Below are positions 1 to 39,185 of a stretch of 39,185 nt of DNA, in pieces. The first letter of the stretch is position 1. Each line of letters opens with the position of its first letter. The notes beneath the pieces are model-generated. The model saw only the letters and a list, made by a program, of their open reading frames with translations. It had not been told where the DNA came from and made no database searches. Origin of the DNA: a virus; IMG/VR virus record IMGVR_UViG_3300025949_000051, positions 1 to 39,185 of that record; one strand, 5' to 3'. Both the position numbers and the translations under genes were made by a program.

Positions 1-104
1 CGCCGTCCTCGGTGACCCGGCGGAGCTCGCCGCGGGTGATCTGCGCCTGCACGGCCTCGTGCGGCGGCCAGTCCAGCTGTAGGACCTGGCCGCCGGCGGC
101 GCGG
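1..104. repeat. Left copy of imperfect terminal direct repeat
   Basis: Bases 1-104 match 39082-39185 at 97 of 104 positions. Mismatches fall at 50, 74, 76, 80, 82, 85 and 86. Both copies are in the same orientation and the same reading frame of a small head gene. Two mismatches are silent. The others change V to I, L to I and L to F, so they look like natural variation rather than sequencing error. Confidence 0.95.
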
Positions 105-133
105 TAGTGCCTGACCTCGGTCTCGTCGCTCAT
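1..133 (-). CDS. Small head-module protein, 5' part (cut by window edge)
   Basis: This is the N-terminal 44 residues of a small acidic protein beginning MSDETEVRHYRAAGGQ. The ATG at 133 follows a GAGG Shine-Dalgarno six bases upstream, and the start lies 8 nt after the stop of the preceding head gene. The reading frame runs off base 1 with no stop. The same protein segment reappears, slightly diverged (VLQLDW here, IIQFDW there), in the truncated gene at the right end. If the molecule is circular the two parts join into one protein of about 107 aa. If not, they are two tandem paralogues. By position, between capsid genes and connectors, it is probably a head or head-tail accessory protein. 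I do not recognise the family. Confidence 0.7.
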   Translation of the reverse strand, partial: MSDETEVRHYRAAGGQVLQLDWPPHEAVQAQITRGELRRVTEDG

Positions 134-3688: not shown

Positions 3689-5368
3689 TTAGCCAGTCGC
3701 CGGCTGCGGCCCGGCGTTCAGCCCGACGCCATCCGCCGTGTACGTCGGCGCACCAGGGTTGGGCTGCGGCTGCGCCGGTTGCGGGCCGAGCTGCTGGCCG
3801 GTGACCGCGATCGGGCCGCCGGTGAACGTGCCCGGATCGGTCAGACCCGCGCCGGGCTGCTCGCCCTGGATCAACGCGACTTCCTTGTCGACCTGAGGGT
3901 CTTCCCAGTCGGGGTGCAGCATCTGCACGCGGGTCTTGGTGCTCGCGGCCTGCGCGGCCTCCAGGAGCTGAAGCGTGCGGGCGACGGACTCTGGATCCTG
4001 CGACACGGCGTCACCGAACCTCAGTTCCGGTTCCTGCACCGTGATCCCGGACCCGAACTGGGCGACGTCGACGAGCTGCAGGGTTTCCAGCAGCTCGGTG
4101 AGTTCTGGCTTCCAGTACTCGATCTTTCGATCGCGGGTGATAGAGGACTTCTTGTCCCGCGAGTTGACCTCGGTCGCGGTGGTGGCGGGCTTCGGGCCCT
4201 CATCCATGCCGAACGTCTGGAGCGAGTAGCCGGCGTCGCTGATGATCCGGGCCAGCGCCTCCTTGGCGGTGCGCGAGTGCTCCTCGACGCGGATCGAGAA
4301 CTGGACGATGGACATCTGTGGCGGGCCGCCGGGCTGCGGCAGCATGTTGAGCGTCTCGTAGACCTCGCGGTCGACGTCCCACCGCGCGCCCTTGCCGGGC
4401 CCGTTGCTGTCGAGGTAGACGTCGGGGACGATGACGCGGCCCTTGGCGAGCCGGATGTCCCGCATCCAGCTCGACCAAATCTCGTCGAGCGCGTCCATGA
4501 CCGGCTCGACGCCGCTGTAGTCGGAGCGGCCGAGGCCGGCGGCGGCTGGGTTCGCGCGCCACATGCGGTTGGGCCGCATGTTCGGGATGTAGACCGCGGT
4601 GAGCCGGCCCGGCACGCCGGTGTCGATGATGTCGCCGGGCAGCATCTGGTCGTCGACGAGCTCCGCGGTGGTCGGGTGGTCTTCCAGCGCCATCCGGTCG
4701 CCGAGCTCGCTAGGACTGCCCTTGTAGAGGCCGTGCATGATCGCGCCGGGCTCGTGCCGCTCGAGGTGCCGCCAGACGGTGTCTCCGTCAGCCTCGATGA
4801 CCCGCCAGAACGTGACCGCGCCGAGCTCGTCGTAGCACCACTCCGGTACTGCGGCGTCGGCGTGCACAGCGGAGATCCACGGCCCGTCGGGTCGCTCGTC
4901 CTTGTCCCAACACACCCTCAGGTAGACGCCGCCGAGTGCGGCCTGCACCTCGGCGGCCTCGAGGAGCCGGGTGTGGAGGCGGCGGTTGACCTTGTCGATG
5001 CGGTCCTGGGTCTTCTTGGTCTCGAACTTGATGGTGGGTGGCTCGGAGAACAGCAGGTCCGCCGAGGTGGCGGCGAGATCGCCGGCGATGGGGATGTGCA
5101 GCTTGGTGCGGCGCTCGCCCATCGGCGTGCGGGCACCCCAGAACAGGCGCTGCAACCAGCCGGACACGCCGCCACGGTGCGCCCACCCGCCCTTTTCGCT
5201 GGCGAAGAACCCCGTGCCGGTCGGGTCGTAGCCCGACTGTCCTCCGTAGACGGCAGAGAGCTGGTCGGGGTCGCCGGAGTACCAGGCGGACCAGGCGGAC
5301 ATGCGGTTCTGCACGCCGCCGAGCTCGCGTGGTGGCCACGCGACCTTTCCGCCGACGGGGAGCGGCAC
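3689..5368 (-). CDS. Portal protein (SPP1 gp6-like)
   Basis: A 559-aa portal subunit; twelve copies form the DNA entry and exit ring at one capsid vertex. The true start is the GTG at 5368 (VPLPVGGKVAWPP), preceded by AAGGAGG; the frame upstream of this is non-coding in style. Internal features typical of the gp6 family include the N-terminal WYSGDPDQLSAVYGG segment, an SADLLFSEPP strand near residue 100, and the AITRDRKIEYWKPEL-like helix late in the protein. A disordered Pro/Gln/Gly tail ends it. It overlaps no neighbour and follows the cysteine-peptidase gene by 16 nt. Confidence 0.93.
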   Translation of the reverse strand: MPLPVGGKVAWPPRELGGVQNRMSAWSAWYSGDPDQLSAVYGGQSGYDPTGTGFFASEKGGWAHRGGVSGWLQRLFWGARTPMGERRTKLHIPIAGDLAATSADLLFSEPPTIKFETKKTQDRIDKVNRRLHTRLLEAAEVQAALGGVYLRVCWDKDERPDGPWISAVHADAAVPEWCYDELGAVTFWRVIEADGDTVWRHLERHEPGAIMHGLYKGSPSELGDRMALEDHPTTAELVDDQMLPGDIIDTGVPGRLTAVYIPNMRPNRMWRANPAAAGLGRSDYSGVEPVMDALDEIWSSWMRDIRLAKGRVIVPDVYLDSNGPGKGARWDVDREVYETLNMLPQPGGPPQMSIVQFSIRVEEHSRTAKEALARIISDAGYSLQTFGMDEGPKPATTATEVNSRDKKSSITRDRKIEYWKPELTELLETLQLVDVAQFGSGITVQEPELRFGDAVSQDPESVARTLQLLEAAQAASTKTRVQMLHPDWEDPQVDKEVALIQGEQPGAGLTDPGTFTGGPIAVTGQQLGPQPAQPQPNPGAPTYTADGVGLNAGPQPATG

Positions 5369-22636: not shown

Positions 22637-24154
22637 TCACCGAAGCCAGTCGACGCGCACGGCATCCGGATCGAACGACGCGCCCCCAACGCGCCTACCT
22701 CGGGTAGTTCGCAGCACGGTGATCTCCACCAACGAGCCGAGCACTGCGCGACGACGCCCGAGCTCGAGGCCGTCACTGCGGTCGGGCTTCGTGCCGAACC
22801 ACAGTACGGAAACGTCCTCGACGCCAACAACGCCGGCGAGCGGATCGACCCTGGCGGCGACCTCGATCTCGCGATCGATCTCGGCGAGACGGTCACGCAT
22901 CCGGTCGTTGCGGCGCTGCCACCGGGCCCGCGTGATCCGGCCGTCGTCGAGATCGTCGTCGAGATCATCGAGCCGCCGCCGCAACGACACGGCTTCCGCG
23001 CTGAGCTCCGCCGTGTCCACCGCGGCCTCGGGCGCCCGCAGCAGCTCGACGGCGTCAGGCCGCGACAGCCGCTCAACGATGAGGTGCTCGACGAAGGCAT
23101 CCAGCGGCGCGGCGGCCCGCACGACGTGCGGACCATCCTTCACGTCTCGCCGGTTGCGGGCACGGCAGCGATAGGCCGGCTTCTGCTCCCCGCCGCCGGC
23201 GGTGCTCACGCGGAGGTCGGGCAGCTCGCACACGCCACAGACGTACAATCCCGAGCCCAGCCAGCGCACACGGTTGCTGCTGGCTGTGCGCCTGTCGGCA
23301 TCGGTCAGGACGGACACGAGCGCCCTCCACGTGTCTTCCGGCACGATCGGATCCCACACGGCGCTGCCGACGATCTCGCCGCGGTACACCGCGAGGCCGG
23401 CGTTGCGCGGCCGCAGCAGCACGTCCTTGAACGAGATCGTCTTCCATTCCTTGCGCCCGAAGGTGGTGCGGAAGCCGCGTTCGTTGACGGCGCGCACGAC
23501 GCTGCGCAGCGACGCGCCGGCGACGATCGCCTCGCTGGCGGCGAGGATCTCGGCGGCCTCGTCGGGTCGGATCGTCTCGCCGTCGGCCTCGAAGCCGAAC
23601 GGCCGGGCGCCGCCTTGCCATCGGCCTGCGCGGGCTGCTTGCAGCCGGGCGGCCCGGATCCGGTCGGCCTTGTGTTCGGACTCGAACCTGGCGACCGCGC
23701 CGAGCTGGCGCGCGATCATGCGGCCGGATGGCGTCGCCAGGTCGAGGTGACCGGCCTTGACGGTGTAGGTGACCACTCCGCGCGGGTCGCAGACCGCGAT
23801 GTACTTCTCCAGCTCGACTGGGGAGCGGTGCAGGCGGTCGGTGTGCCACGCGGTGACGGCTTTGGCGTGTCCGGCGCTGAGGTCGGCGAGCATCTGCTGG
23901 TAGTCAGGCCGAGGCTTGCCCGAGTAAGCGCTCAGGTCGTTGTCCGCGTACACGCCGGCCAACGAGAAGCCGAGCCGCTCGAACAGGTCGCAGAGATCAT
24001 CGAGTTGCCGCTCGACGCCGAGACCAGCGCCCTCTCGGTCCTGGGAGATCCGGACGTACATGACGGCGGCCGTGCCTTCGCGCTCGCCGAGCGCTTGCAG
24101 CCTCGCGACCAAACGGTCCGGAAGGTGGACGTCCGGCAAGCGCAGTTGTCCCAT
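22637..24154 (-). CDS. int: Large serine recombinase (integrase)
   Basis: A 505-aa site-specific recombinase. The catalytic domain opens with AVMYVRISQDREG (nucleophile Ser37) and includes WHTDRLHRSPVELE. The recombinase domain follows (WQGGARPFGFEADG..., EWKTISFKDVLLRPRNAGLAVYRG). A zinc ribbon (YVCGVCELPDL ... YRCRARN) lies near residues 303-330. A coiled coil (about 395-445) controls directionality in this family. It would integrate the phage by attP x attB recombination and needs a separate directionality factor for excision; none is identifiable by sequence here. Confidence 0.95.
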   Translation of the reverse strand: MGQLRLPDVHLPDRLVARLQALGEREGTAAVMYVRISQDREGAGLGVERQLDDLCDLFERLGFSLAGVYADNDLSAYSGKPRPDYQQMLADLSAGHAKAVTAWHTDRLHRSPVELEKYIAVCDPRGVVTYTVKAGHLDLATPSGRMIARQLGAVARFESEHKADRIRAARLQAARAGRWQGGARPFGFEADGETIRPDEAAEILAASEAIVAGASLRSVVRAVNERGFRTTFGRKEWKTISFKDVLLRPRNAGLAVYRGEIVGSAVWDPIVPEDTWRALVSVLTDADRRTASSNRVRWLGSGLYVCGVCELPDLRVSTAGGGEQKPAYRCRARNRRDVKDGPHVVRAAAPLDAFVEHLIVERLSRPDAVELLRAPEAAVDTAELSAEAVSLRRRLDDLDDDLDDGRITRARWQRRNDRMRDRLAEIDREIEVAARVDPLAGVVGVEDVSVLWFGTKPDRSDGLELGRRRAVLGSLVEITVLRTTRGRRVGGASFDPDAVRVDWLR

Positions 24155-25312: not shown

Positions 25313-25492
25313 CTACAGCTCGCCGCGAGCAACCGCCGCGAGCAACCGGGACACCGGACTGCGGTCCTCGAACCGCAGAACAGCGCCATTTGGATTCTTC
25401 GAGTCGCGAAGGGCGCCGAGGCTGCTGACCTCGATGCAATCGCCGCCCTGGCCCCCTCCGCTATAGCTCGACTTCCTCCATTCCTCGGTCAT
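25313..25492 (-). CDS. DUF397 protein (partner of the XRE-DUF5753 regulator)
   Basis: A 59-aa protein reading MTEEWRKSSYSGGGQGGDCI..., then DSKNPNGAVLRF. WRKSSYS...GDCIEV...DSKNP..LRF is the DUF397 signature. Its ATG overlaps the regulator's stop (ATGA). In Streptomyces such proteins pair with WhiJ-type XRE-DUF5753 regulators, apparently as small modulators or antagonists. Confidence 0.93.
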   Translation of the reverse strand: MTEEWRKSSYSGGGQGGDCIEVSSLGALRDSKNPNGAVLRFEDRSPVSRLLAAVARGEL

Positions 25493-26349
25493 GTTCTCTC
25501 CATCCTGCCGGCCAGCAATTCGGTGACTTTCATGACCGACATCCTCGGGGTGAGCGCCACGTCGAGAACCTTTCGCGCGGCGTCTCTGTAGCCTTCCACG
25601 TCCGCCTCTTCGTGAAGATAGAGACCGGCCTCGCCGACCTCGATATGGAGGATCGGGCTCGCGCTCTCGAAGTCGAACAGACTGAATAGTGGCTTCACCA
25701 TTCCCGGGTGGTAGCCGATGCCACCCGGAACGATACGGAGGTCAATATTCGGCTTCTCTGCCATTGTCAGCAGGTGGCGCAGTTGATCGTCCATTGCCTC
25801 GCGCCCACCGACGTTCGCCGTGATCGCGGCCTCGCCGATCAGTGCGGTCATCTGGACAGGATTGCGCCGGTTCAAGATCTCGCGCCGGCCTACCCGCACG
25901 GCCACGCGGGGTTCGACGTCAGCGGCCGGCGCCTCTGCGCGGATGACGGCGCGGGCGTACTCGGCGGTCTGAAGTAGGCCGGGGACGACGGTCATGGCCA
26001 CCTGAGTGATGCGCTTGGTGGTGCGCTCGAATTCCAGCATTGCGGCCAGGTGGGCGCGAGGTTCTGGCACTCCGACCGGCAGCCAGCTGTGCCCGGTGTC
26101 CTCGGCGTCCATCACGGCGAGGATTTCTTGCCGTAGCGCGCCGGTGACGTCGAGCTCGTCGAGGACGCGGATGACCTGCTCGGGCTGCGGCAGCCGCTCG
26201 CCGCTCTCGACCCGTGACCAGGTCGAGTTCTTGATCGCGCCGGCCGTCCGCCGCTCCAGCTCACGCAGGCCGACATCGGCCTGTTCGCGAGCACGCTTGA
26301 GGGCCGCGCCGAGCGTCCGCGCCTTCGCCGTTCCGGTGCTGCTGACCAT
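25489..26349 (-). CDS. XRE-DUF5753 regulator (WhiJ-like)
   Basis: A 286-aa protein from ATG 26349 (an ATG at 26376 with GGGGA upstream is an alternative). The N-terminal HTH (LGAALKRAREQADVGLRELE ... STWSRVESGERLPQPEQVIRVL) spans about residues 12-65. The rest is DUF5753 with ITQVAMTVVPGLLQTAEYAR, VGRREILNR, IGEAAI and DLRIVPGG segments. Such regulators normally act in actinomycete development and accessory loci, so carriage by a phage suggests a lysogen-expressed switch acting on itself, the divergent small genes, or host targets. Confidence 0.92.
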   Translation of the reverse strand: MVSSTGTAKARTLGAALKRAREQADVGLRELERRTAGAIKNSTWSRVESGERLPQPEQVIRVLDELDVTGALRQEILAVMDAEDTGHSWLPVGVPEPRAHLAAMLEFERTTKRITQVAMTVVPGLLQTAEYARAVIRAEAPAADVEPRVAVRVGRREILNRRNPVQMTALIGEAAITANVGGREAMDDQLRHLLTMAEKPNIDLRIVPGGIGYHPGMVKPLFSLFDFESASPILHIEVGEAGLYLHEEADVEGYRDAARKVLDVALTPRMSVMKVTELLAGRMERT

Positions 26350-26390
26350 GCAGCACAGCGTATGCGCACCAGCCATCGAATTGATCCCCA

Positions 26391-27351: not shown

Positions 27352-27573
27352 TCAGCTGCTCGGTGGAGTGTCGCCAGCGCGCGGCGTGTGCTTGGCCAGC
27401 CAGCCGGCGACGAACGCCGCGGCCGCCGTGACCGCGCCGTCGATCGCGCCGACCAGCCAGTCCGGCACGGCGGAGCCGTGGAACACGGCAGTGCCGATCC
27501 ATCCGACGATGAACGCGGTGATCAGCGCCGTGGTGCTGGCGGCGGTCACCTTGGTCTCGATGGGTGCGCTCAT
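27352..27573 (-). CDS. Holin
   Basis: A 73-aa protein with two hydrophobic segments (about residues 16-33 and 41-60), a short loop, and a GWLAKHTPRAG end typical of small actinophage holins. It would permeabilise the membrane at a set time so the lysin reaches the wall. It sits directly downstream of the lysin gene. Confidence 0.85.
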   Translation of the reverse strand: MSAPIETKVTAASTTALITAFIVGWIGTAVFHGSAVPDWLVGAIDGAVTAAAAFVAGWLAKHTPRAGDTPPSS

Positions 27574-27585
27574 GGACGTGCCCTT

Positions 27586-28476
27586 TCAGCTCTGGGCCGG
27601 CGCGTCCGGCACCAGCTTCAGCTCGTAGTGGCCGGTGGACGGGTTGAGCTGGGCCTGCTGCGGCTGGCCGTTGATGGCGACGGTGACCTGCGGAGCCATG
27701 ACCTTGGCCTCGGCGGTGAACCGGGTGACCAGGTCCTGCCAGCGGCCCATCGCGTCGGCGTCGCTCGCGCCGTCGTTGAGGTTGCTGTATGCCTGAGCGG
27801 CCCGGACCGAGGCGGGGATCGGCAGGCCGAGGAACGCGCCGTTCTCGAGCAGCAGCCCGGAACCCACCTCGTTGCCGCCCTGCGAGACGGCGAACCAGTT
27901 GCCCATGTCGATTCCCTTCGGAGTAGTAGGAGATGCAGCGGTCAGCCAGTCATCGACGACCACCGACAGGTCGAAGTGGCCGCCGGACCCACGGCCGCCG
28001 GGCCCGTACTGCGGGTCGGCGAACTGGTGGAACGCTGAGGTGATGCCGTTCAGCGTCTCCTGCACCGCGCCGGCGCCCGGGTAGGCGGCCACGCCGTAGT
28101 GCGGGTGCGGCACGCCGGCGGCGTTGAACGCGGCTTGGAGCGCTCCCCAGTCGGCGAGCCCGACGTACACCGTCGGCTCGGCGTCGCCGCGGGCCCGCTT
28201 GGCACGTACCCAGGCGACCGCCTCGGCAGCGGTGGCGTCGCCGTTCTCCCGGTCGAGCACGTCGGCGTCCAGCGTGCTGGCCAGCACGGCGCACCGGACG
28301 TGCACTGAGTTCGGAAACCGTGCCCACGCGGTCGCCGTCCACGCGTCGGGCGGCTGGCCGGCAGGACCGTAACGGCCGTCCACGTAGCCGAGCACGTAGT
28401 CCCACGGCTGTCCCGTCGCCGGGTCGTTGACCGGAATGTCGGTCGGCGTGATCGAGTCGACCATCCGCTTGATCAT
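27586..28476 (-). CDS. Endolysin-like glycosidase (GH25-like fold) with C-terminal module
   Basis: A 296-aa protein from ATG 28476, six bases after GGAGGGG. The N-terminal ~200 residues look like a glycoside-hydrolase-like barrel of actinophage lysins: VDSITPTDIPV, VLGYVDGRYGP, a DxE pair at Asp75/Glu77 inside VLDRENGDATAAEAVAWV, then PTVYVGLADWGALQAAF and a FDLSVVVDDW strand. A linker at about 183-190 leads to a ~105-residue C-terminal module. Position next to holin supports peptidoglycan hydrolysis. Catalysis is inferred from fold resemblance. An internal ATG at 27906 has its own AAGGGA site. Confidence 0.75.
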   Translation of the reverse strand: MIKRMVDSITPTDIPVNDPATGQPWDYVLGYVDGRYGPAGQPPDAWTATAWARFPNSVHVRCAVLASTLDADVLDRENGDATAAEAVAWVRAKRARGDAEPTVYVGLADWGALQAAFNAAGVPHPHYGVAAYPGAGAVQETLNGITSAFHQFADPQYGPGGRGSGGHFDLSVVVDDWLTAASPTTPKGIDMGNWFAVSQGGNEVGSGLLLENGAFLGLPIPASVRAAQAYSNLNDGASDADAMGRWQDLVTRFTAEAKVMAPQVTVAINGQPQQAQLNPSTGHYELKLVPDAPAQS

Positions 28477-28478
28477 GG

Positions 28479-29126
28479 TCATCCCCTCCCGATCCGGAGC
28501 GCTGGCGCCGAGCTCGTCGAGGTCGTCGGCGGCGCGCAGCTGTAGGTCGGCGCGGAATCCGGTGAGCCGGCGTCGCGCGTGCATCGGTAGGTGACGCCGG
28601 CCGGCGAGGTCCATGTCCAGCTGGCCGGCGGCTGGCCGTTGGCGCCAGGCGGTCCCTGTGGGCCGGCTGGGCCTGCGGCGCCCGCCGAGCCGTCCGTCCC
28701 ATTGGCCCCGGGCTGGCCGTCCGCCCCGGGCGCGCCGTCGGCGCCGGATGGTCCCGCCGCGCCGCTCGCGCCGGTCGGGCCGGGCGGTCCACTCGGGCCG
28801 ACGGGACCGGGTGGCCCTTGCGGGCCGGTCGCGCCCTGCGGGCCTGCGGCGCCGGTGACCGCCGGCGGCTGCACAGCCGGCGTCCCGCCGAGCCGCAGCA
28901 CCTGGTCGGCCAGCGCCTGCGCCGCCGAGTGATTGTCGGCCGCAGACGTGGCCAGCGCGTCGATCTGGGCCTGCTGTGTGGCTGACCGCAACAGCATCAA
29001 GCCGGCCAGGACCAGGATGCTCAGCACCGCCAGCGCGCCGGCGATCCAGATCTTGCGGTGCCCGTTGACGTCCCGCGCCCGCTGGGCGGCCTGTGCGACA
29101 TGAGTGCTGCGTGCGTCCTCAGTCAT
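28479..29126 (-). CDS. Membrane-anchored collagen-like protein
   Basis: A 215-aa protein. A basic cytoplasmic N-terminus is followed by one membrane segment (about residues 27-47, [19 protein letters not shown]), a short helical stalk and then about 24 Gly-X-Y triplets (about residues 92-163, [14 protein letters not shown] style). A small C-terminal domain has two Cys. The topology puts the collagen rod outside the membrane. It sits in the lysis cassette, in ATGA overlap with the gene before it. It may be a spanin-like or wall-spanning factor. Confidence 0.85.
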
Positions 29127-29362
29127 CCGTCGAGCTCCTTCCGGCGCTGGTCGCGGTGCACCTGGCGGAGACGGGCGATCTCGTCGTCGCTGAGTGCGCC
29201 GTCGTCAGCGTCGTCGAGCAACTCGTCGACGATCTCCTTGGCCGCACGCGCACGCTCGCGCGGGGACGTGCGGCGCAGGGCCGTGATGACACCGGCAACG
29301 CTGCTGCCAACACCGGTGATGACGGCCGCCAGCGCGGTGAGCAGCGTGGCCAGATCACCCAC
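29123..29362 (-). CDS. Small single-TM protein of lysis cassette
   Basis: A 79-aa protein from GTG 29362. One N-terminal hydrophobic segment (about residues 4-27) is followed by a charged helical cytoplasmic tail ([21 protein letters not shown]). It may be a second holin, antiholin or spanin-type component. Overlaps the collagen-like gene (ATGA). Confidence 0.75.
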
Positions 29363-29389: not shown

Positions 29390-30133
29390 TCACGACTGCC
29401 GCAGGTGGCAGCCGAACACTTGGGCGGCAACAACTCCCGTGCCGCTCGACACCGCCTTGAGCTGAACCTGAATGCCCTCGTTGCCGAACACGCCGGAGAT
29501 GTCGAACGGCCCCTTGCTGGCGACTTCCAGCGTGCCGTTCTCGGTCCAGGTACCGACGACCGAGCCGGCGACGTAGAGCTTGTAGGTGGTGTTGTTGCTG
29601 CCCGACCCCTGCCCCCATACGCCGTCGATCCGGATGCGCGGATGGCTACCGAGAGGGATTCGCCCCTCCCACAAGGCAGTCTCGGTCGTGATGGCGCTGG
29701 CGTTGACGGTGCTGTAGCCGACGATCGAGCTCGCGGCGATGCTGAACAGCGGGTACATCGGCACCGCCAAGTAGGGGTACGCCATGCCGCCGGTCTGCAC
29801 GTCATCGGCGAAGATGATGCGCCCCAAGTAGTCCCGGATGGCTGTGAAGTAACGGCCGCTGGGGACATCGAGCTGAGTGGCCAGGATGGCCGAGCCGCCC
29901 GGCCGCCACAACTGGAACACCTGCGACGGGCCGCCCCCGGGGTCAGGTCCGATGTAGGCCACAACGTTGCCGGAGGCGTCCTCCATCTCGAAGAACGCGC
30001 CACCTTTGATCAGCAAGCCGCCGCGGCTGATGGTCGCCGAGGACAGGCCGACCGCGCGCCGCAGTTCGTCGATCTGCCGCTGCAGGTCGGCGAGCTGGCT
30101 GATGATGTCGGCCGGCTGGTTCACCTGCCCCAT
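29390..30133 (-). CDS. Minor tail protein, trimerising
   Basis: A 247-aa protein. The N-terminal coiled coil (IISQLADLQRQIDELRRAVG, about residues 10-29) is followed by beta-rich repeats (GGLLIKGGAFFEMEDASG) and a C-terminal beta domain. The build resembles distal tail or fibre proteins that follow the baseplate genes. It ends with FGCHLRQS. Confidence 0.75.
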   Translation of the reverse strand: MGQVNQPADIISQLADLQRQIDELRRAVGLSSATISRGGLLIKGGAFFEMEDASGNVVAYIGPDPGGGPSQVFQLWRPGGSAILATQLDVPSGRYFTAIRDYLGRIIFADDVQTGGMAYPYLAVPMYPLFSIAASSIVGYSTVNASAITTETALWEGRIPLGSHPRIRIDGVWGQGSGSNNTTYKLYVAGSVVGTWTENGTLEVASKGPFDISGVFGNEGIQVQLKAVSSGTGVVAAQVFGCHLRQS

Positions 30134-30142
30134 GAGTCCCCC

Positions 30143-31276
30143 TCAGTAGACGTCGCCGAGCAGTGGCGCCATCGTCAGCTGCACCGTCTCCTCGCCGCCC
30201 TGGTCGGACACCGTGACGTCCAGCCCGATGATCCGCGACGAGGTGTCGAGGCCGGCGGTGAAGAACTCGTCCTTGATGACCAGGCGGCAGTCGTCGCCGA
30301 CCGAGAAGTCATCGACGGTCGGCGAAAGCGATCCGTCCACCTGGAACGTCGGCAGCACCACCGGCAGTCGGTTCACGAACTGGTCCGACGCCGCGTGGTC
30401 GATCAGCGTCTGCGCCTCGCTGACCCCGCTGTACTGCTGGGCCCCTTCGAGTAGCGGCCAGCCGTTGTTGTAGCGCGTCAGGTCCTCGGCGACGCCGATC
30501 GGCGTGCCCTCGGCGGTGCCGTCCGAGGTCGCGAACGCGCGGGTTTCCATTCGCGTGCCGTCGCTCGGCCAGACGTACGACCGCATGTTGCCGCCGAGTT
30601 CCCACACCCACGGCGAGCCCTGCTGGCCGAGGTGCGGCGCGCCCAGGCGCAGCAGCCGCGTCGGCCTGCCCTGGGAATCGGTCGGCCCGACGTCGAACAG
30701 CATGTCGGGTCCATTGAGGACGTTGCACAGGTCCTGTAGCGCCGAGCCGACATCCTTGAGCTGATAGCCGTAGTAGGACCGGTCGCGGTTGATGTCCGAG
30801 GAGTTGTTGTCCACCGTGATGCCGATGTCCCCGCCGGTGTGCGACGCGGCCTCGGCGATCAGGTTGCGGACAATCAAGTTCTGCTCTGTCGCTGTGTACG
30901 CCGTGGACAGTGAGGCGACGTATTCAGTGTCGGCGTAGGCCGTTCCGGACAGCACCGGCAGGATGTACCGGTGGTTGTAGTAGCTCCACCAGTCCGCCGC
31001 GCCGATCGACAGAACCTTGCTCTCACTGTCGTACTTGCGGGTCCAGATGATGCCGCCCCACACCGGATTGTCGCCGCGTAGCACGTAGATCGCGCGGCTC
31101 GTCGGCGTGGTCAGCGTGTACGGGTTGAGTGCGGCGATCTTCGGCGTGAGGATCGTCTGGCCCTTCAATGTGCCGCAGTCGCAGAGCTTCTGCGACCACT
31201 TCACCGACGCCAGCGGCAGTTCGCCCAGGATCGTGTTGGTGCGCAGATCGGCGATCAGGTAGGTGTACTGGGCCAC
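30143..31276 (-). CDS. Minor tail protein (gp37-like, tail-associated)
   Basis: A 377-aa protein. The N-terminus (YTYLIADLRTNTILGELPL) and the segments VWGGIIWTRKY and IGAADWWSYYNHR are typical of the Gp37-like minor tail family found two genes after the distal tail protein in actinophages. It probably forms part of the tail tip hub. Confidence 0.8.
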   Translation of the reverse strand: MAQYTYLIADLRTNTILGELPLASVKWSQKLCDCGTLKGQTILTPKIAALNPYTLTTPTSRAIYVLRGDNPVWGGIIWTRKYDSESKVLSIGAADWWSYYNHRYILPVLSGTAYADTEYVASLSTAYTATEQNLIVRNLIAEAASHTGGDIGITVDNNSSDINRDRSYYGYQLKDVGSALQDLCNVLNGPDMLFDVGPTDSQGRPTRLLRLGAPHLGQQGSPWVWELGGNMRSYVWPSDGTRMETRAFATSDGTAEGTPIGVAEDLTRYNNGWPLLEGAQQYSGVSEAQTLIDHAASDQFVNRLPVVLPTFQVDGSLSPTVDDFSVGDDCRLVIKDEFFTAGLDTSSRIIGLDVTVSDQGGEETVQLTMAPLLGDVY

Positions 31277-31277
31277 C

Positions 31278-32522
31278 TCACACCTCGGTGATGAGGGTAT
31301 TCGGCCCGAGGCGCTTGGCGATGAAGTAGGTGCTGCCGTTGGACGACGCGGTGATGCTCGCGGTGCCGGTACCGCTAATGCGCTGGATACTACCGACGTA
31401 GGTCTTCGTGATCGCGGCCGTGGTGCGCAAGATGAACTTGCGGTTGACGATCAGCGGAATGCCGGCGTTCACATCCGGCTCGGCCGCCTGCATGATCACC
31501 GTGCCGCTGAGATTCGTCTCCCTGATGATCCAGTTGAACGTGTCTCCGGACACCGTGCAGTTGTAGTTGGCCTGCATTTCCAGCTCGTACTCAGAGTTGG
31601 GTTCGAACGTGATCGAGCCGGTGTTGACGTTGATCAGGGCCTCGGTGCCGCCCGAGGTGGGGCCGGCGATCGTGCCGCCGGTGACGTATCGCTTGCCGCC
31701 GAACGCGGTACTGTCCGCTCGCTGCCACGCGCCGCTGACGTAGACGTAGGCGATGCCGGTCGTCAGCATCGCGAGCTGCCCGGCATACGGCGTGGTGACG
31801 GCGGACTGGATGTCCGCCAAGGACGTGCCGAACGCGTCCTGAACCAGCCAGCCGCCGGCCGCAATCGAGTAAATCTCGACCCACGTCCGGTCGCTCCGCC
31901 AGATGGTCATGCCGTCGTAGGGCGTCAGCGTCGCCCGGTCCGTCGCGTTCTTGACCGGCAGCACGCCACCGAGCGCGACGGCCCACGGCGGCCGCAGGTC
32001 GTCGATCATCGATGCGGTGATGGTCCCCGCGAGCGCCGTCACGCGCACGCGCGCAAGCGTGATGTAGTCGCTGGATCCGCTCGGCGTCGGATCGACCGGC
32101 GTGCCCGACGGCGTGCCGACGACCTGATAGACCTTCCACAGGTTGTCGCCGTCGCCGTAGCCGGTGTCATCCTGCTGAGCGATGATCAGGTCGTTGCGCT
32201 GCAAGCTCGGGTCGGCCGGGTGCGCAGTCAGAAGGTCGATGTTCGTATTCACGTCGAGGCACTGGATGTAGCTGCCAGCGCCACGACCGGTCTGCATGAA
32301 CATCTGGAACGCGTTGACCTTGACGGTCTTGTCCGGCGTGCTCTGGGCGGCGACGAGGCCAGGTGATCCGGCGGCGGTCGAAGCGCCGGGCCGCAATCCG
32401 GTGCGCGCCTTGACGTTCGTGCTGCCCGGAGTGATCAGGGCGCCGATGTGCAGCCGGGCATCCTCGGTGGTGATGATGCCGCCCGGCGAGGCGGACACGG
32501 CCCAGCTGTTGCGTGCGGACAC
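31278..32522 (-). CDS. Minor tail / baseplate protein
   Basis: A 414-aa protein from GTG. It has beta-rich domains, a WKVYQVVGTPSGTPVDPTPSG linker, ASMIDDLRPPW in the centre and an ALINVNTGSITFEPNSEYELE beta-sandwich C-terminus that could bind host glycans. It lies after the distal tail and before the gp37-like protein (2-nt gap). Confidence 0.75.
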   Translation of the reverse strand: MSARNSWAVSASPGGIITTEDARLHIGALITPGSTNVKARTGLRPGASTAAGSPGLVAAQSTPDKTVKVNAFQMFMQTGRGAGSYIQCLDVNTNIDLLTAHPADPSLQRNDLIIAQQDDTGYGDGDNLWKVYQVVGTPSGTPVDPTPSGSSDYITLARVRVTALAGTITASMIDDLRPPWAVALGGVLPVKNATDRATLTPYDGMTIWRSDRTWVEIYSIAAGGWLVQDAFGTSLADIQSAVTTPYAGQLAMLTTGIAYVYVSGAWQRADSTAFGGKRYVTGGTIAGPTSGGTEALINVNTGSITFEPNSEYELEMQANYNCTVSGDTFNWIIRETNLSGTVIMQAAEPDVNAGIPLIVNRKFILRTTAAITKTYVGSIQRISGTGTASITASSNGSTYFIAKRLGPNTLITEV

Positions 32523-32535
32523 GAGAACCTCCGGA

Positions 32536-33414
32536 TCAGGCGGCGGCGTCGCGCCAAGAGACGGTGAGCGTTGCGTTCGGGTCGTAGGTGCCGAGCTGCG
32601 CGAAGTCGATCCGTGTCGGCGTGTTCGGCAGCAAGGGGAACCACGAGCGCGTGAACAGCTGGTTGTTGGCCTGCACGCCCTGCAACATGACCTGGCGCAG
32701 GTCCGTGTCGATCGTCAGCGTCTGGCCTGCTGCCACGACGAAGCTGGGATTGAACTGAAGCCGGTCGCCCGTGTCGTGGTTGGTGATCGTCGGCCCAGTG
32801 ACCGGACCGGTGATCGTGAACTGCGGCCAGGACGCGACCCAACCGGCATTTGTGATATTCGAGAGGAAGCCGCCCGTCGGGCCGGCGCCGAAGTCCAACG
32901 GGAACACGAGCGGGAACACGAGACCGGACGTGGCCGCCGTCGCCAGTCCGGTCGACATCGTGTGCAGCGACGGCGAGTAGAGCTTCGGGTCCGTCGCCTC
33001 CCACTGGAGCGCGAGTGTGGTGTACCCGACGGCGTACAGCTTGTCGACGGGCATCGCCCGCTTCTTCAACCTGGCGTTGCACAACCACTTCTGACCGTTG
33101 AGCTGGATGACGAGCGGTTCCTCGACGGGGGATTCGGTCGGCGCGCTCAACGCCTGAATCGCCGCCACGCCGCCGGGGAAGCCACTCAGCGGGACGCCCT
33201 TGGTCTGAAACGTCGCCGTGACGACCCGCTTCGCCATCAGTGAGGCGTTGGGAAACATCCCGTGGCGGCTCGGCCGCGGCTGGTCGTCTCCCCGGAAATC
33301 CGGGAGGTCCAACCAGCCCGTCAGCGTGTCGAGCCGCCACATCGAGGTGCCGCCGAGGATCGTCGAGCGCCACTCGACCTGTCCGTCGCCCGTCAGCAGG
33401 TCGCCCGCGGCCAC
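32536..33414 (-). CDS. Distal tail protein (Dit-like)
   Basis: A 292-aa protein located directly after the tape measure, the usual place of Dit. It has an N-terminal beta domain (RRVVTATFQTKGVPL-like strand, QWEATDPKLYSP) and a C-terminal galectin-like region (DRLQFNPSFVVAAGQTLTIDTD). It links the tail tube to the tip complex. Confidence 0.82.
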   Translation of the reverse strand: MAAGDLLTGDGQVEWRSTILGGTSMWRLDTLTGWLDLPDFRGDDQPRPSRHGMFPNASLMAKRVVTATFQTKGVPLSGFPGGVAAIQALSAPTESPVEEPLVIQLNGQKWLCNARLKKRAMPVDKLYAVGYTTLALQWEATDPKLYSPSLHTMSTGLATAATSGLVFPLVFPLDFGAGPTGGFLSNITNAGWVASWPQFTITGPVTGPTITNHDTGDRLQFNPSFVVAAGQTLTIDTDLRQVMLQGVQANNQLFTRSWFPLLPNTPTRIDFAQLGTYDPNATLTVSWRDAAA

Positions 33415-33415
33415 G

Positions 33416-35578
33416 TCAGCCTCCCGCCTTCGCCAGCCACGCCATCTCCCGCGCGATGTCCTGCGCGTCCTGGCCGGCGTAGGCGTGGAAGTTCTCGATG
33501 TTCAGCCCGGCGCCGGCGTTGGTGGCGAACGGTCGAGCGTTGCCGGCCAGCGGGCCGCCGTTCGGCCCGAAGTCGACGCCGATCTGACCGCCGACGTTGC
33601 TGATCTGGTTGGTCAGGCCGGTCAGGTAGTCGGTCAGTGGGCGCTGACCGTTCTGCAGTCCGGCCAGCAGACCGCCCATGATCGCGTTGCCGTGCGGAGT
33701 GAGCAGCGTCGCGTCGTAGGACAGCGGCCCCTTGTGCGACGAGATCCAGTCGCCGATGCCGCCGATGAAGCTGGTGACACCGTTCCACGCTGCCTTGAGT
33801 CCGGCAAGCAGGCCGTCGAGGATTGCCTTGCCGGCGTTGACGAGCAGGTTGCCGAACCCGGCCGCGGCGTTCCCGATCAGGGAACCGAGGCCCTTGATGA
33901 GATCGACCACCGCGTTGATGCCGCTCGACACGACGTTCTTGACCTGGTCCCAGACCGCGCCGAGCACCTCCTTGATGCCCTGCCAGACCTGTGACCAGTT
34001 GCCCGAGATCAGGCCCATGACGATGTCGATGACGCCCTGCACGGCGTGCATCACGTTGGTGACCGTGTCCTGAATGAACCCGAACACCACCTGGACGACC
34101 GGCAGCAGCGCGTTGATGATCGGGATCAGCAGGCCAGCGATGATGTTGATGACCGGCACCAGAACTGGCACCAGCGCCGCGATCGCCTGCGCCACAACGA
34201 GCAGCACAGGCGTCAGGGCGTTGATGATGGTGATCAGCGGCGGCAGCAGCGCCATCGCCAGCTGCACGATCGGCGGCAGGATCGGCAGCAGCGCGCCGAG
34301 GATCTGCAGGAACGCCGGCGCAAGCGCCTGCAGCACCTGCAGCAGCGCCCCACCCAGCGCGGCGACCAGCTGCCCGACCACCGGCAACAGCGGCATGGTC
34401 GCGTGCAGCACCTGCATGAGGGCTTGCGCGAGGAACGTCTGGAAAACGCCGACGATCTGCGTGACGATCGGCAGCAGCTGCAGCAGGATCGGCGACAGGC
34501 CACTCGCGAGCTGGGCGATGATCGCCGCGAACGCGGGGATCAGCGGCGTGATCGGGCTCAACAGGTTGGCCAGGGCCGGAATCAGCGGCTGCACCGCCTG
34601 AACGACGCCGACCAGGATCGGCGCGAGACCGATGAGCACCTGGCCGAGCTGCTGCCCCAGCTGCGCGATCACGGGACCGGCCGCGGCGAACAACTGTCCG
34701 AGCGCCACACCCAACGGCGCCAGCGCCTGCACCACGTTCAGAATCACCGGGCCCAGCTGCTGCACGACCGGAATCAGCGTGCCGACGAGGCTGGTGACGA
34801 GCTGCTGGATGATCGGCATGAGGGCGGCGACGATCGGACCGCCCACGTTGGCCAACGCGCCGATCAGGGAGCCCAGCGGCCCCAGGATGGCGCTCACGCC
34901 CTGTAGCAGGGCGCCGATCGCCTGCTGCGCCCCGCCGGCGCCGCTGGCGACGCCTTGCAGGAACTGGGCCAGACCACCGCCGAGGGAAGCGATGCCGCTC
35001 GACAGCGTGCTGATCACGGGCCCGGCGACCTGCACCACGGCCTGGATCCCGGGCATGAGCCCTGTCACGAAGCCGGCGACACCATGAGCGAGATCAGTGA
35101 TCATCGGGCCGAGCTGCTGGAAGATGCTCGCCAGTGCGGGCCGGATGCTGTCGAACGTCTGGGTGGCCAGCTTGGCCACGTTCAGTAGCACCGGGACCAG
35201 CGGTGCAGCCATCTGGGTCAGGCTCGTTTGCACGTGATCGGCGAGCGCAGAGAACGACGCCTGCACGTTGGCGTTCGACTTGATAGCCATGATGGCGACC
35301 GCGGAGACCACGGCCCCGACGCCGGCTATCGCGCCGCCCGCCCCTACGGCGGCGCCGCTGGCTACACCGCCGAACAGGCCCATGTACTTGGTCAGCTGGA
35401 GGATGCCCTCGCCGCTGCTCTTGGCCTGGCCGCCGATGTAGTCGGACAGGCTCCCGAAGACGCCCTTGATCTCGACGGCCGTGGCGGCCATCTTCGTCTT
35501 GGCCATGTCGAGGCCGCGGTCGAACTTCGAGCCGTCGAGGCCGAGATAGGCGACAAGGTCGCCGACGGTGAGCGCCAC
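33416..35578 (-). CDS. Tape measure protein
   Basis: A 720-aa protein from GTG 35578 (GAGGGG nine bases upstream), the longest in the genome. The N-terminus [20 protein letters not shown] is typical. The middle (about residues 100-560) is nearly uncharged, Leu/Ile/Val/Gln/Pro-rich helical repeats ([14 protein letters not shown] style, about 30-40-residue periodicity). The C-terminus has [19 protein letters not shown]. It sets tail length, which would be about 105-110 nm using the usual 0.15 nm per residue. Confidence 0.95.
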
Positions 35579-38890: not shown

Positions 38891-39185
38891 TCACTGGCCG
38901 TAGCGCTCCTGCATGTCCTTGACGGTCATGGCCTGCGCGTCGTCGACCGACACCGGATGATCGGTGTTCTCGGTGAGTGTGACGACGTAGCCCACCCACT
39001 CGTCCTTGCTGGCGTTCTTCGCCGGCGCCTTCGGGGCGACCACCTGGGGCACTCCGTCGTCGGCCGGCTCGACGTAGGGCTCGCCGTCCTCGGTGACCCG
39101 GCGGAGCTCGCCGCGGGTGATCTGCGCCTGTACGGCCTCGTGCGGCGGCCAGTCGAACTGGATGATTTGGCCGCCGGCGGCGCGG
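38891..39185 (-). CDS. Small head-module protein, 3' part (cut by window edge)
   Basis: 97 residues to the TGA at 38891, missing the N-terminus. It starts in frame with RAAGGQIIQFDWPPHEA, nearly the same as residues 11-27 of the gene fragment at 1-133, and continues EPYVEPADDGVPQVV... to MTVKDMQERYGQ. Joined to the left fragment it would be about 107 aa. A SKDEWVGYVV..DDAQAMTVKDMQERYG ending suggests a small helical domain. Confidence 0.75.
   Translation of the reverse strand, partial: RAAGGQIIQFDWPPHEAVQAQITRGELRRVTEDGEPYVEPADDGVPQVVAPKAPAKNASKDEWVGYVVTLTENTDHPVSVDDAQAMTVKDMQERYGQ
39082..39185. repeat. Right copy of imperfect terminal direct repeat
   Basis: Matches 1-104 at 97 of 104 positions, in the same orientation and reading frame. 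Confidence 0.95.

What the first reader, a model, noticed from the sequence alone, without database searches (positions are those of the whole stretch)
28479..29126. Membrane-anchored collagen-like rod in the lysis cassette
Collagen repeats usually occur in fibres, but here they follow a membrane anchor and lie beside a small TM protein, lysin and holin. A rigid rod across the wall could act in outer-layer disruption in mycolate or other complex-envelope hosts, or in surface display.
Basis: inference. Interest (0 to 1): 0.52.

Follow-up and report, generated by a model that had tools for sequence, protein, structure and literature searches.

The report
Membrane-anchored collagen rod, actinophage lysis cassette
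A phage gene next to the cell-bursting genes makes a membrane-anchored collagen-like rod about as long as a bacterial wall is thick; it belongs to a widespread family usually labelled as tail fibre, and several features suggest that it instead sits in the envelope of the dying cell.

Summary
ORF 28479-29126(-), 215 aa, has an N-in membrane anchor, a short stalk, 25 uninterrupted Gly-X-Y triplets and a two-cysteine C-terminal cap. It is one gene of a conserved pair: a small membrane protein with a charged cytoplasmic part (A, 29123-29362) overlaps it by 4 nt. In 33 AB loci gathered here, A lies directly upstream of B in 33, two cysteines follow the rod in 33, and an endolysin-type gene lies within about 2 kb in 28. 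The pair also occurs in 232 Cutibacterium phage records, Arthrobacter phages (same order as here: A, B, endolysin, holin) and Streptomyces phages (endolysin, holin, A, B), mostly annotated "minor tail protein", sometimes with a start codon that removes part of the anchor region. My reading: B is a trimeric, wall-length rod fixed in the membrane of the lysing cell, acting with A in the lysis module. Anchoring is well supported by sequence; the lysis role is inferred. A virion fibre is the main rival, since no proteomics was found. The mycolate idea is not supported: all named hosts are Cutibacterium, Streptomyces or Arthrobacter. The window's own lysin could not be assigned to a family.

The parts
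28479..29126 (-). B: membrane-anchored collagen-like protein, 215 aa
   Evidence: relatives
28989..29045 (-). B, transmembrane segment, residues 28-46 (N-in)
   Evidence: hydropathy and flanking charges
28878..28913 (-). B, stalk motif LxxQVxxLGxxP just before the rod, residues 72-83
   Evidence: L, Q, V, L, G invariant in 15 aligned relatives
28629..28853 (-). B, 25 uninterrupted Gly-X-Y triplets, residues 92-166
   Evidence: Pfam PF01391
28536..28628 (-). B, two-cysteine C-terminal cap (C182, C197)
   Evidence: two cysteines after the rod in all 33 loci
29123..29362 (-). A: 79-aa membrane protein, N-terminal TM then charged cytoplasmic helix; overlaps B by 4 nt
27586..28482 (-). putative lysin, start overlaps end of B (ATGA); family not recognised
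   Evidence: by position, as in relatives
27352..27573 (-). holin-like, 73 aa
   Evidence: weak phrog_9284 match
29390..30133 (-). last gene upstream of the pair, phrog_9849 (unknown function), in the tail-gene run
30143..31276 (-). minor tail protein, phrog_1885

Best explanation
B is a single-pass (type II) membrane protein made late in infection together with its overlapping partner A. Three copies form a collagen triple helix outside the membrane, about 21 nm long here and 18-33 nm in relatives, closed by a cysteine-paired cap, so that the rod crosses the peptidoglycan. With A (a membrane protein whose charged part faces the cytoplasm, loosely like XhlA) it forms an accessory module of the lysis cassette that acts on the envelope when holin and endolysin open the cell. 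Shown: gene architecture, conserved pairing, conserved neighbourhood. Inferred: topology, trimer, disulphide, wall crossing, late expression, and action in lysis or egress. How it acts (strut that keeps the wall breach open, tether of the endolysin, or loosening of outer layers) is a guess.
For: A is directly upstream of B in 33 of 33 loci: 32 by script, L153 by hand. An endolysin-type gene lies on the same strand within about 2 kb in 28 of 33 (27; L180 by Amidase_2). In phages OnionKnight and SF3 B follows the holin, beyond the tail genes; in the window, Arthrobacter and Cutibacterium phages the order is A-B-endolysin-holin (Maja and Shoya have one small ORF between B and lysin A and no gene named holin in the stretch seen, and PeggyLeg03 has 'membrane protein' in place of a named holin). 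A profile of the pre-collagen part alone matched 9 genomes of 394 at E 5e-7 or better, and all 9 continue into Gly-X-Y. Of 80 other viral collagen loci only L016, the family member already known as L004, has a compact anchored form. Paired cysteines after the rod in 33 of 33 fit an exported place rather than the reducing cytoplasm where tail fibres assemble. Arthrobacter phage PeggyLeg03 gp24 is already annotated 'membrane protein'.
Against: No experiment. Three genomes carry the pair with no phage gene nearby (L151, L155, L157), and L152 and L156 have no recognised endolysin close by, so a lysis role is not general. The window lysin is unproven. Nearly all annotations and two C. acnes phage papers treat B as a tail or adhesion protein. 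Genes between tail and lysin are often tail genes. A is only weakly like hemolysin/XhlA PHROGs (2 of 11 members for each of two families, best E 5e-4) and no Pfam XhlA match appeared.
Confidence: 0.5

Rival explanations
1. B is a virion protein: a short collagen tail fibre or adhesion protein whose N-terminal hydrophobic helix is buried in the tail tip, as records annotate it.
For: Annotated 'minor tail', 'collagen like minor tail' or 'tail fiber' in most records; PHROG category 'tail' for phrog_1806 and phrog_18350; collagen fibres with trimer-forming caps are known in prophage tails (PMC3368898); in C. acnes phages gp19 is the most divergent gene of the structural block and was read as host-range related (PMC3094311, PMC12945031).
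Against: Overlap with, or immediate neighbourhood of, a small membrane protein in every locus; TM with positive-inside flanks; position after the holin in Streptomyces phages; the pair occurs without phage genes in three genomes; the annotated starts of SF3 gp25 and PA6 gp19 cut away part of the anchor region, which would hide it from annotators.
Confidence: 0.27
2. B is displayed on the surface of the infected cell or lysogen to act outward: to block superinfection, to keep progeny from re-adsorbing to debris, or to stick cells together.
For: Chromosomal AB pair with dN/dS about 0.07 to 0.13 for A and 0.28 to 0.36 for B; rod and cap are swapped while the anchor is kept (window versus L004; Popper versus Sarge cap), as expected of a part that meets variable partners; bacterial collagen-like adhesins exist (NCBIfam SclA/SclB/Lcl, far below cut-off).
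Against: Position inside or beside the lysis cassette and overlap of reading frames with lysis genes; no expression data; no cell-wall sorting signal.
Confidence: 0.2
3. The reading frame is a low-complexity artefact of high G+C sequence.
For: G+C about 70% and Gly/Pro/Ala-rich codons; other frames of the region are open too.
Against: Anchor and stalk conserved at 81-86% in two other viral contigs; 0 of 20,000 shuffles reach the repeat; same architecture in unrelated hosts.
Confidence: 0.01

Closest known systems
PHROG families phrog_18350 ('tail fiber protein') and phrog_1806 ('collagen like minor tail'; Cutibacterium phage PA6 gp19)
   Same: TM at the N-terminus, Gly-X-Y rod, cysteine cap, small gene before it, endolysin and holin beside it
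   Different: The window protein itself matches only through rod and cap; these families are described as tail parts
Streptomyces phages OnionKnight gp24-gp25, Kromp gp27-gp28, SF3 gp24-gp25
   Same: A-B pair with overlapping frames, in the lysis cassette
   Different: Order endolysin-holin-A-B; in OnionKnight and Kromp the A protein has the coil first and TM last
Arthrobacter phages Sarge, Shoya, Popper, Zaheer, Maja, PeggyLeg03
   Same: A, then B, then endolysin as in the window, A with TM first
   Different: Longer stalk with interrupted Gly-X-Y in most; lack the LxxQVxxLG motif
Spanins (Rz/Rz1 and unimolecular)
   Same: Works-like comparison only: membrane-anchored elongated protein of the lysis cassette that crosses the envelope
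   Different: No outer membrane, no lipoprotein partner, collagen rod instead of coiled coil; not homologous
Streptococcal collagen-like surface proteins SclA/SclB
   Same: Surface-exposed Gly-X-Y rod
   Different: Sortase-anchored at the C-terminus; here an N-terminal TM; score far below the NCBIfam cut-off

Membership tests
Collagen triple-helix repeat proteins (PF01391) | Gly-X-Y repeats above the curated cut-off | tested here: met
   57.8 bits against cut-off 27.2; 25 triplets
Actinophage AB module (name mine) | Small one-TM protein directly upstream with overlapping frame | tested here: met
   33 of 33 loci; the script favoured overlaps of 4 or 1 nt when choosing starts
Actinophage AB module (name mine) | N-terminal TM, LxxQVxxLGxxP stalk, rod, two-cysteine cap | tested here: met
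Phage minor tail / tail fibre protein | Present in the virion | not testable with these tools
   No virion proteomics found for a relative
Phage minor tail / tail fibre protein | Profile match over the full length including the N-terminus | tested here: not met
   Window residues 118-202 only in phrog_18350 and 89-164 in phrog_1806; relatives OnionKnight and PA6 do match from the N-terminal part
Spanins | Outer-membrane lipoprotein partner or lipobox, diderm host | tested here: not met
   No cysteine before residue 182 in B, so no lipobox; A and the holin-like protein lack one by inspection
XhlA-type lysis protein (for A) | Significant XhlA/hemolysin profile match | tested here: inconclusive
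   phrog_937 and phrog_1193 'hemolysin' in 2 of 11 members of A9 each, best E 5e-4; none for the window A protein
Sortase-anchored collagen-like adhesins (SclA/SclB) | NCBIfam cut-off and LPXTG signal | tested here: not met
   47.1 bits against cut-off 325; C-terminus ends ALRIGRG
Phage endolysin (window 27586-28482) | Recognisable catalytic domain | tested here: inconclusive
   No Pfam, PHROG or NCBIfam match; L003 relative GH25 E 8e-4 below cut-off; hhalign to two GH25 lysins negative
Phage holin (window 27352-27573) | Similarity to an annotated holin | tested here: met
   Kromp gp26 E 7e-10; mu1/6 holin E 2e-5, both single-pair E-values; phrog_9284 E 0.008

The most novel reading that the evidence does not exclude
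Phages of single-membrane actinobacteria carry a two-gene envelope device, a small membrane protein plus a wall-length, membrane-anchored collagen strut, that serves lysis or egress in the way spanins serve phages of diderm hosts; hundreds of database entries mislabel it as a minor tail protein, some because the annotated start removes part of the anchor.
Probability: 0.35. Interest if true: 0.75.

Novelty: new variant of a known kind. Interest (0 to 1): 0.55.

Why it matters
If right, it adds another kind of player to lysis of Gram-positive hosts, shows collagen used as a wall-spanning strut rather than a tail fibre, and corrects a label carried by many of at least 232 Cutibacterium phage records, where the same protein has been treated as a host-range adhesion protein. 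It also makes a plain test possible: look for the protein in virions and in membranes.

Tried and rejected
Chance: rejected. A direct relative of the window protein in cultured phages: none by tblastn, nor for the lysin; relatives were reached only step by step through L003, L004, L011 and L015. First genome-contig scan with A1: nothing; the second gave ordinary collagen proteins where I looked (L096, L099) and a centre for the genome surveys. L012 was a false relative. Lysin fold: model too poor to search, so no fold search was run; profile comparison with two GH25 lysins and the PDB sequence search gave nothing usable.

Coverage limits. In one search, 63 of 394 genomes matched at E 0.01; loci were returned for 30 matches, of which the best 9 plus L137 encode collagen and 20 do not; the remaining matches were not examined. 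In one search, the weakest of 18 hits (G622) was not examined. In one search I looked at 10 of the 15 loci; 9 have the stalk motif before collagen. L158 (from L137) lacks the canonical stalk motif and was added to the 33 loci by hand. The endolysin references include genes of the loci themselves; for the window, L003, L176, L178 and L181 no above-threshold domain supports the endolysin call.

Literature: 10 searches listed no paper that by title or abstract start describes a membrane-anchored collagen protein in a phage lysis cassette. Passages were seen of PMC3094311, PMC3368898 and PMC12945031; of the others only listings and abstract starts.

Full report
What is there. The window is a 39,185-base virus record. 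On the minus strand the late genes run: tape measure 33416-35578, distal tail protein 32536-33414, 31278-32522 (weak minor-tail match), minor tail protein 30143-31276, phrog_9849 protein 29390-30133, then A 29123-29362, B 28479-29126, a putative lysin 27586-28482 and a holin-like gene 27352-27573. A and B overlap by 4 nt, and the lysin start overlaps the end of B. B has a TM from residue 28, a stalk, 25 Gly-X-Y triplets (92-166), a two-cysteine cap (C182, C197) and a short tail ending RIGRG. None of 20,000 shuffles gives a run above 8 triplets.

How firm are the neighbours. The holin-like gene is similar to the annotated holins of Kromp (E 7e-10) and mu1/6 (E 2e-5), both single-pair E-values. 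The lysin has no recognised domain, and its model is too poor to use. Its only relative found (L003) has a sub-threshold GH25 match. The lysin call therefore rests on position.

Closest relatives. Two IMG/VR contigs carry B with 86% and 81% identity in the first 91 residues. In L004 the tail genes upstream look different, the downstream enzyme is an Rv2525c-like glycoside hydrolase, and the rod and cap of B are replaced, yet A, the anchor and stalk and the terminal RIGR are kept. A third contig, L011, has the window's cap type but the other enzyme. So A plus the anchor and stalk of B is the conserved core; rod, cap and enzyme are exchanged around it.

A wide family. A prophage record (L015) and then cultured phages led to a shared motif before the rod, LxxQVxxLG. 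A profile of that pre-collagen part (A5) was run on 394 genomes of the class of Nonomuraea (Actinomadura) parvosata: 63 matched at E 0.01. The 9 best (E 5e-7 or better) all continue into Gly-X-Y, as does one weaker match (L137); the other 20 returned loci do not. In the order of G080 (unnamed; probably Streptomycetales, inferred from lysin similarity) 18 of 293 genomes matched at 1e-4, 17 of them at 6.3e-11 or better. In the family of G314, 14 of 150 matched the full protein at 1e-15.

The pair. I assembled 33 loci: the window, four viral contigs, three cultured phages and 25 genome loci. A small one-TM protein lies directly upstream in 32 by script and in L153 by hand. Overlap is 4 nt in 26, 1 nt in 5 and 8 nt in 1 of the 32; the script favoured overlaps of 4 or 1 nt when choosing starts. 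Records annotated by others show overlaps of 4 or 8 nt too (OnionKnight, Zaheer, Maja, Popper, Shoya, Sarge, PeggyLeg03); Kromp is annotated with a longer overlap. A comes in two layouts, TM first (window, Sarge, L153, SF3) and coil first (most genome loci); in those I looked at, the basic residues next to the TM place the coil or charged part inside. Two cysteines follow the rod in all 33. The caps fall into several unrelated-looking types that are exchanged even between close Arthrobacter phages (Popper versus Sarge).

Lysis context. An endolysin-type gene lies within about 2 kb, same strand, in 27 of 33 by tblastn and in L180 by Amidase_2, so 28 of 33; five of these 28 (window, L003, L176, L178, L181) lack an above-threshold domain (L176 was not scanned and counts through L181). 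The five without are L151, L155 and L157 (no phage gene nearby), L152 and L156. In most genome loci and in OnionKnight, Kromp and SF3 the order is endolysin, holin-like, A, B, that is, beyond the tail genes. In Cutibacterium PA6 and in Arthrobacter phages the order is A, B, endolysin, holin as in the window, with exceptions: in Maja and Shoya a 40-odd-residue ORF sits between B and lysin A and no gene is named holin in the stretch seen, and PeggyLeg03 has 'membrane protein' after the endolysin. tblastn of the PA6 N-terminal part finds 232 phage records, all Propionibacterium or Cutibacterium. Sarge gp21 finds 17 records, all Arthrobacter. SF3 B finds SF1 and SF3.

Why the anchor was missed. 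SF3 gp25 is annotated from 4021 of L208, but an in-frame GTG at 3970 overlaps gene A by 4 nt and adds 17 basic residues' worth of N-terminus in front of the hydrophobic stretch. PA6 gp19 is annotated from a GTG inside the hydrophobic stretch, while an in-frame TTG two bases after gp18 adds a basic N-terminus, and the PHROG profile begins there. PeggyLeg03 gp24 is annotated as a membrane protein. Published descriptions call the Cutibacterium protein a tail or adhesion protein (PMC3094311 passages; PMC12945031 passages); the latter reports a low-confidence trimer model (pTM 0.24) and asks for experimental validation.

Control for anchoring. Of 80 other viral collagen loci brought in by the repeats, 4 have a hydrophobic segment before the rod, and the only compact one is L016, which is L004 again. 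An anchor is therefore not a usual property of viral collagen proteins.

Mechanism. The rod is 75 residues here and 62-114 in 31 loci (Sarge left out, its rod being interrupted; L153 not in the list), which at 0.286 nm per residue (recalled) is 21 nm and 18-33 nm, the range of Gram-positive wall thickness (recalled, 20-40 nm). A trimer anchored by three TMs and held by a disulphide cap would put the cap at or beyond the outer face of the wall. I think it acts with A at lysis. The conserved pairing and cassette position carry that claim; the action itself is inferred. Against a purely lytic role stands the chromosomal pair in L151, L155 and L157, under purifying selection in pairwise comparison (A dN/dS 0.07 and 0.13, B 0.28 and 0.36 for L155 against L157 and L151).

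What cannot be excluded. A virion fibre with a buried hydrophobic helix is still possible; I found no proteomics. Surface display against superinfection is possible too. The mycolate idea is not supported: hosts named in records are Cutibacterium, Streptomyces and Arthrobacter, and the window's DUF5753/DUF397 pair points to a filamentous actinomycete (recalled distribution).

Novelty. The protein is a new member of a family that exists in databases under the tail label; the reading of it as a membrane-anchored rod in an AB lysis module is what I did not find in print (searches, open-licence papers only).

Noticed in passing
window 27586-28482 and L003 8657-9505: The two putative lysins are nearly identical over their last 110 or so residues but much less alike before that, as if the N-terminal enzyme part had been exchanged.
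   Followed up: partly
L153 8641-9561(-): A protein with a peptidoglycan-binding domain just upstream of the AB pair carries its own short collagen-like tail; it might co-assemble with B.
   Followed up: no
L151, L155, L157: AB pair in the chromosome without phage genes nearby, with similar neighbours in L155 and L157, under purifying selection; a possible host-adopted copy.
   Followed up: partly
L206 2574-3320 and L207 2543-3340: The gp19 genes of Cutibacterium phages PA6 and PAD20 end in different reading frames, so PA6 lacks PAD20's cap sequence.
   Followed up: partly
L208 3970-4659 and L206 2574-3320: Annotated starts of SF3 gp25 and PA6 gp19 leave out part of the N-terminal anchor region.
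   Followed up: yes
window 1-133 and about 38926-39185: The two ends of the record encode similar but not identical stretches, as if the assembly ended in a diverged overlap of a circular or redundant genome.
   Followed up: partly
window 25313-26376(-): HTH-DUF5753 gene followed by a DUF397 gene between the lysis genes and the serine integrase (22637-24154), a host-type regulator pair of actinomycetes carried by the phage.
   Followed up: partly
L007 12141-12407: Phage SV1 has an A-like coil-plus-TM gene in its lysis region but no B gene is annotated after it, so A-like genes may occur without B.
   Followed up: no
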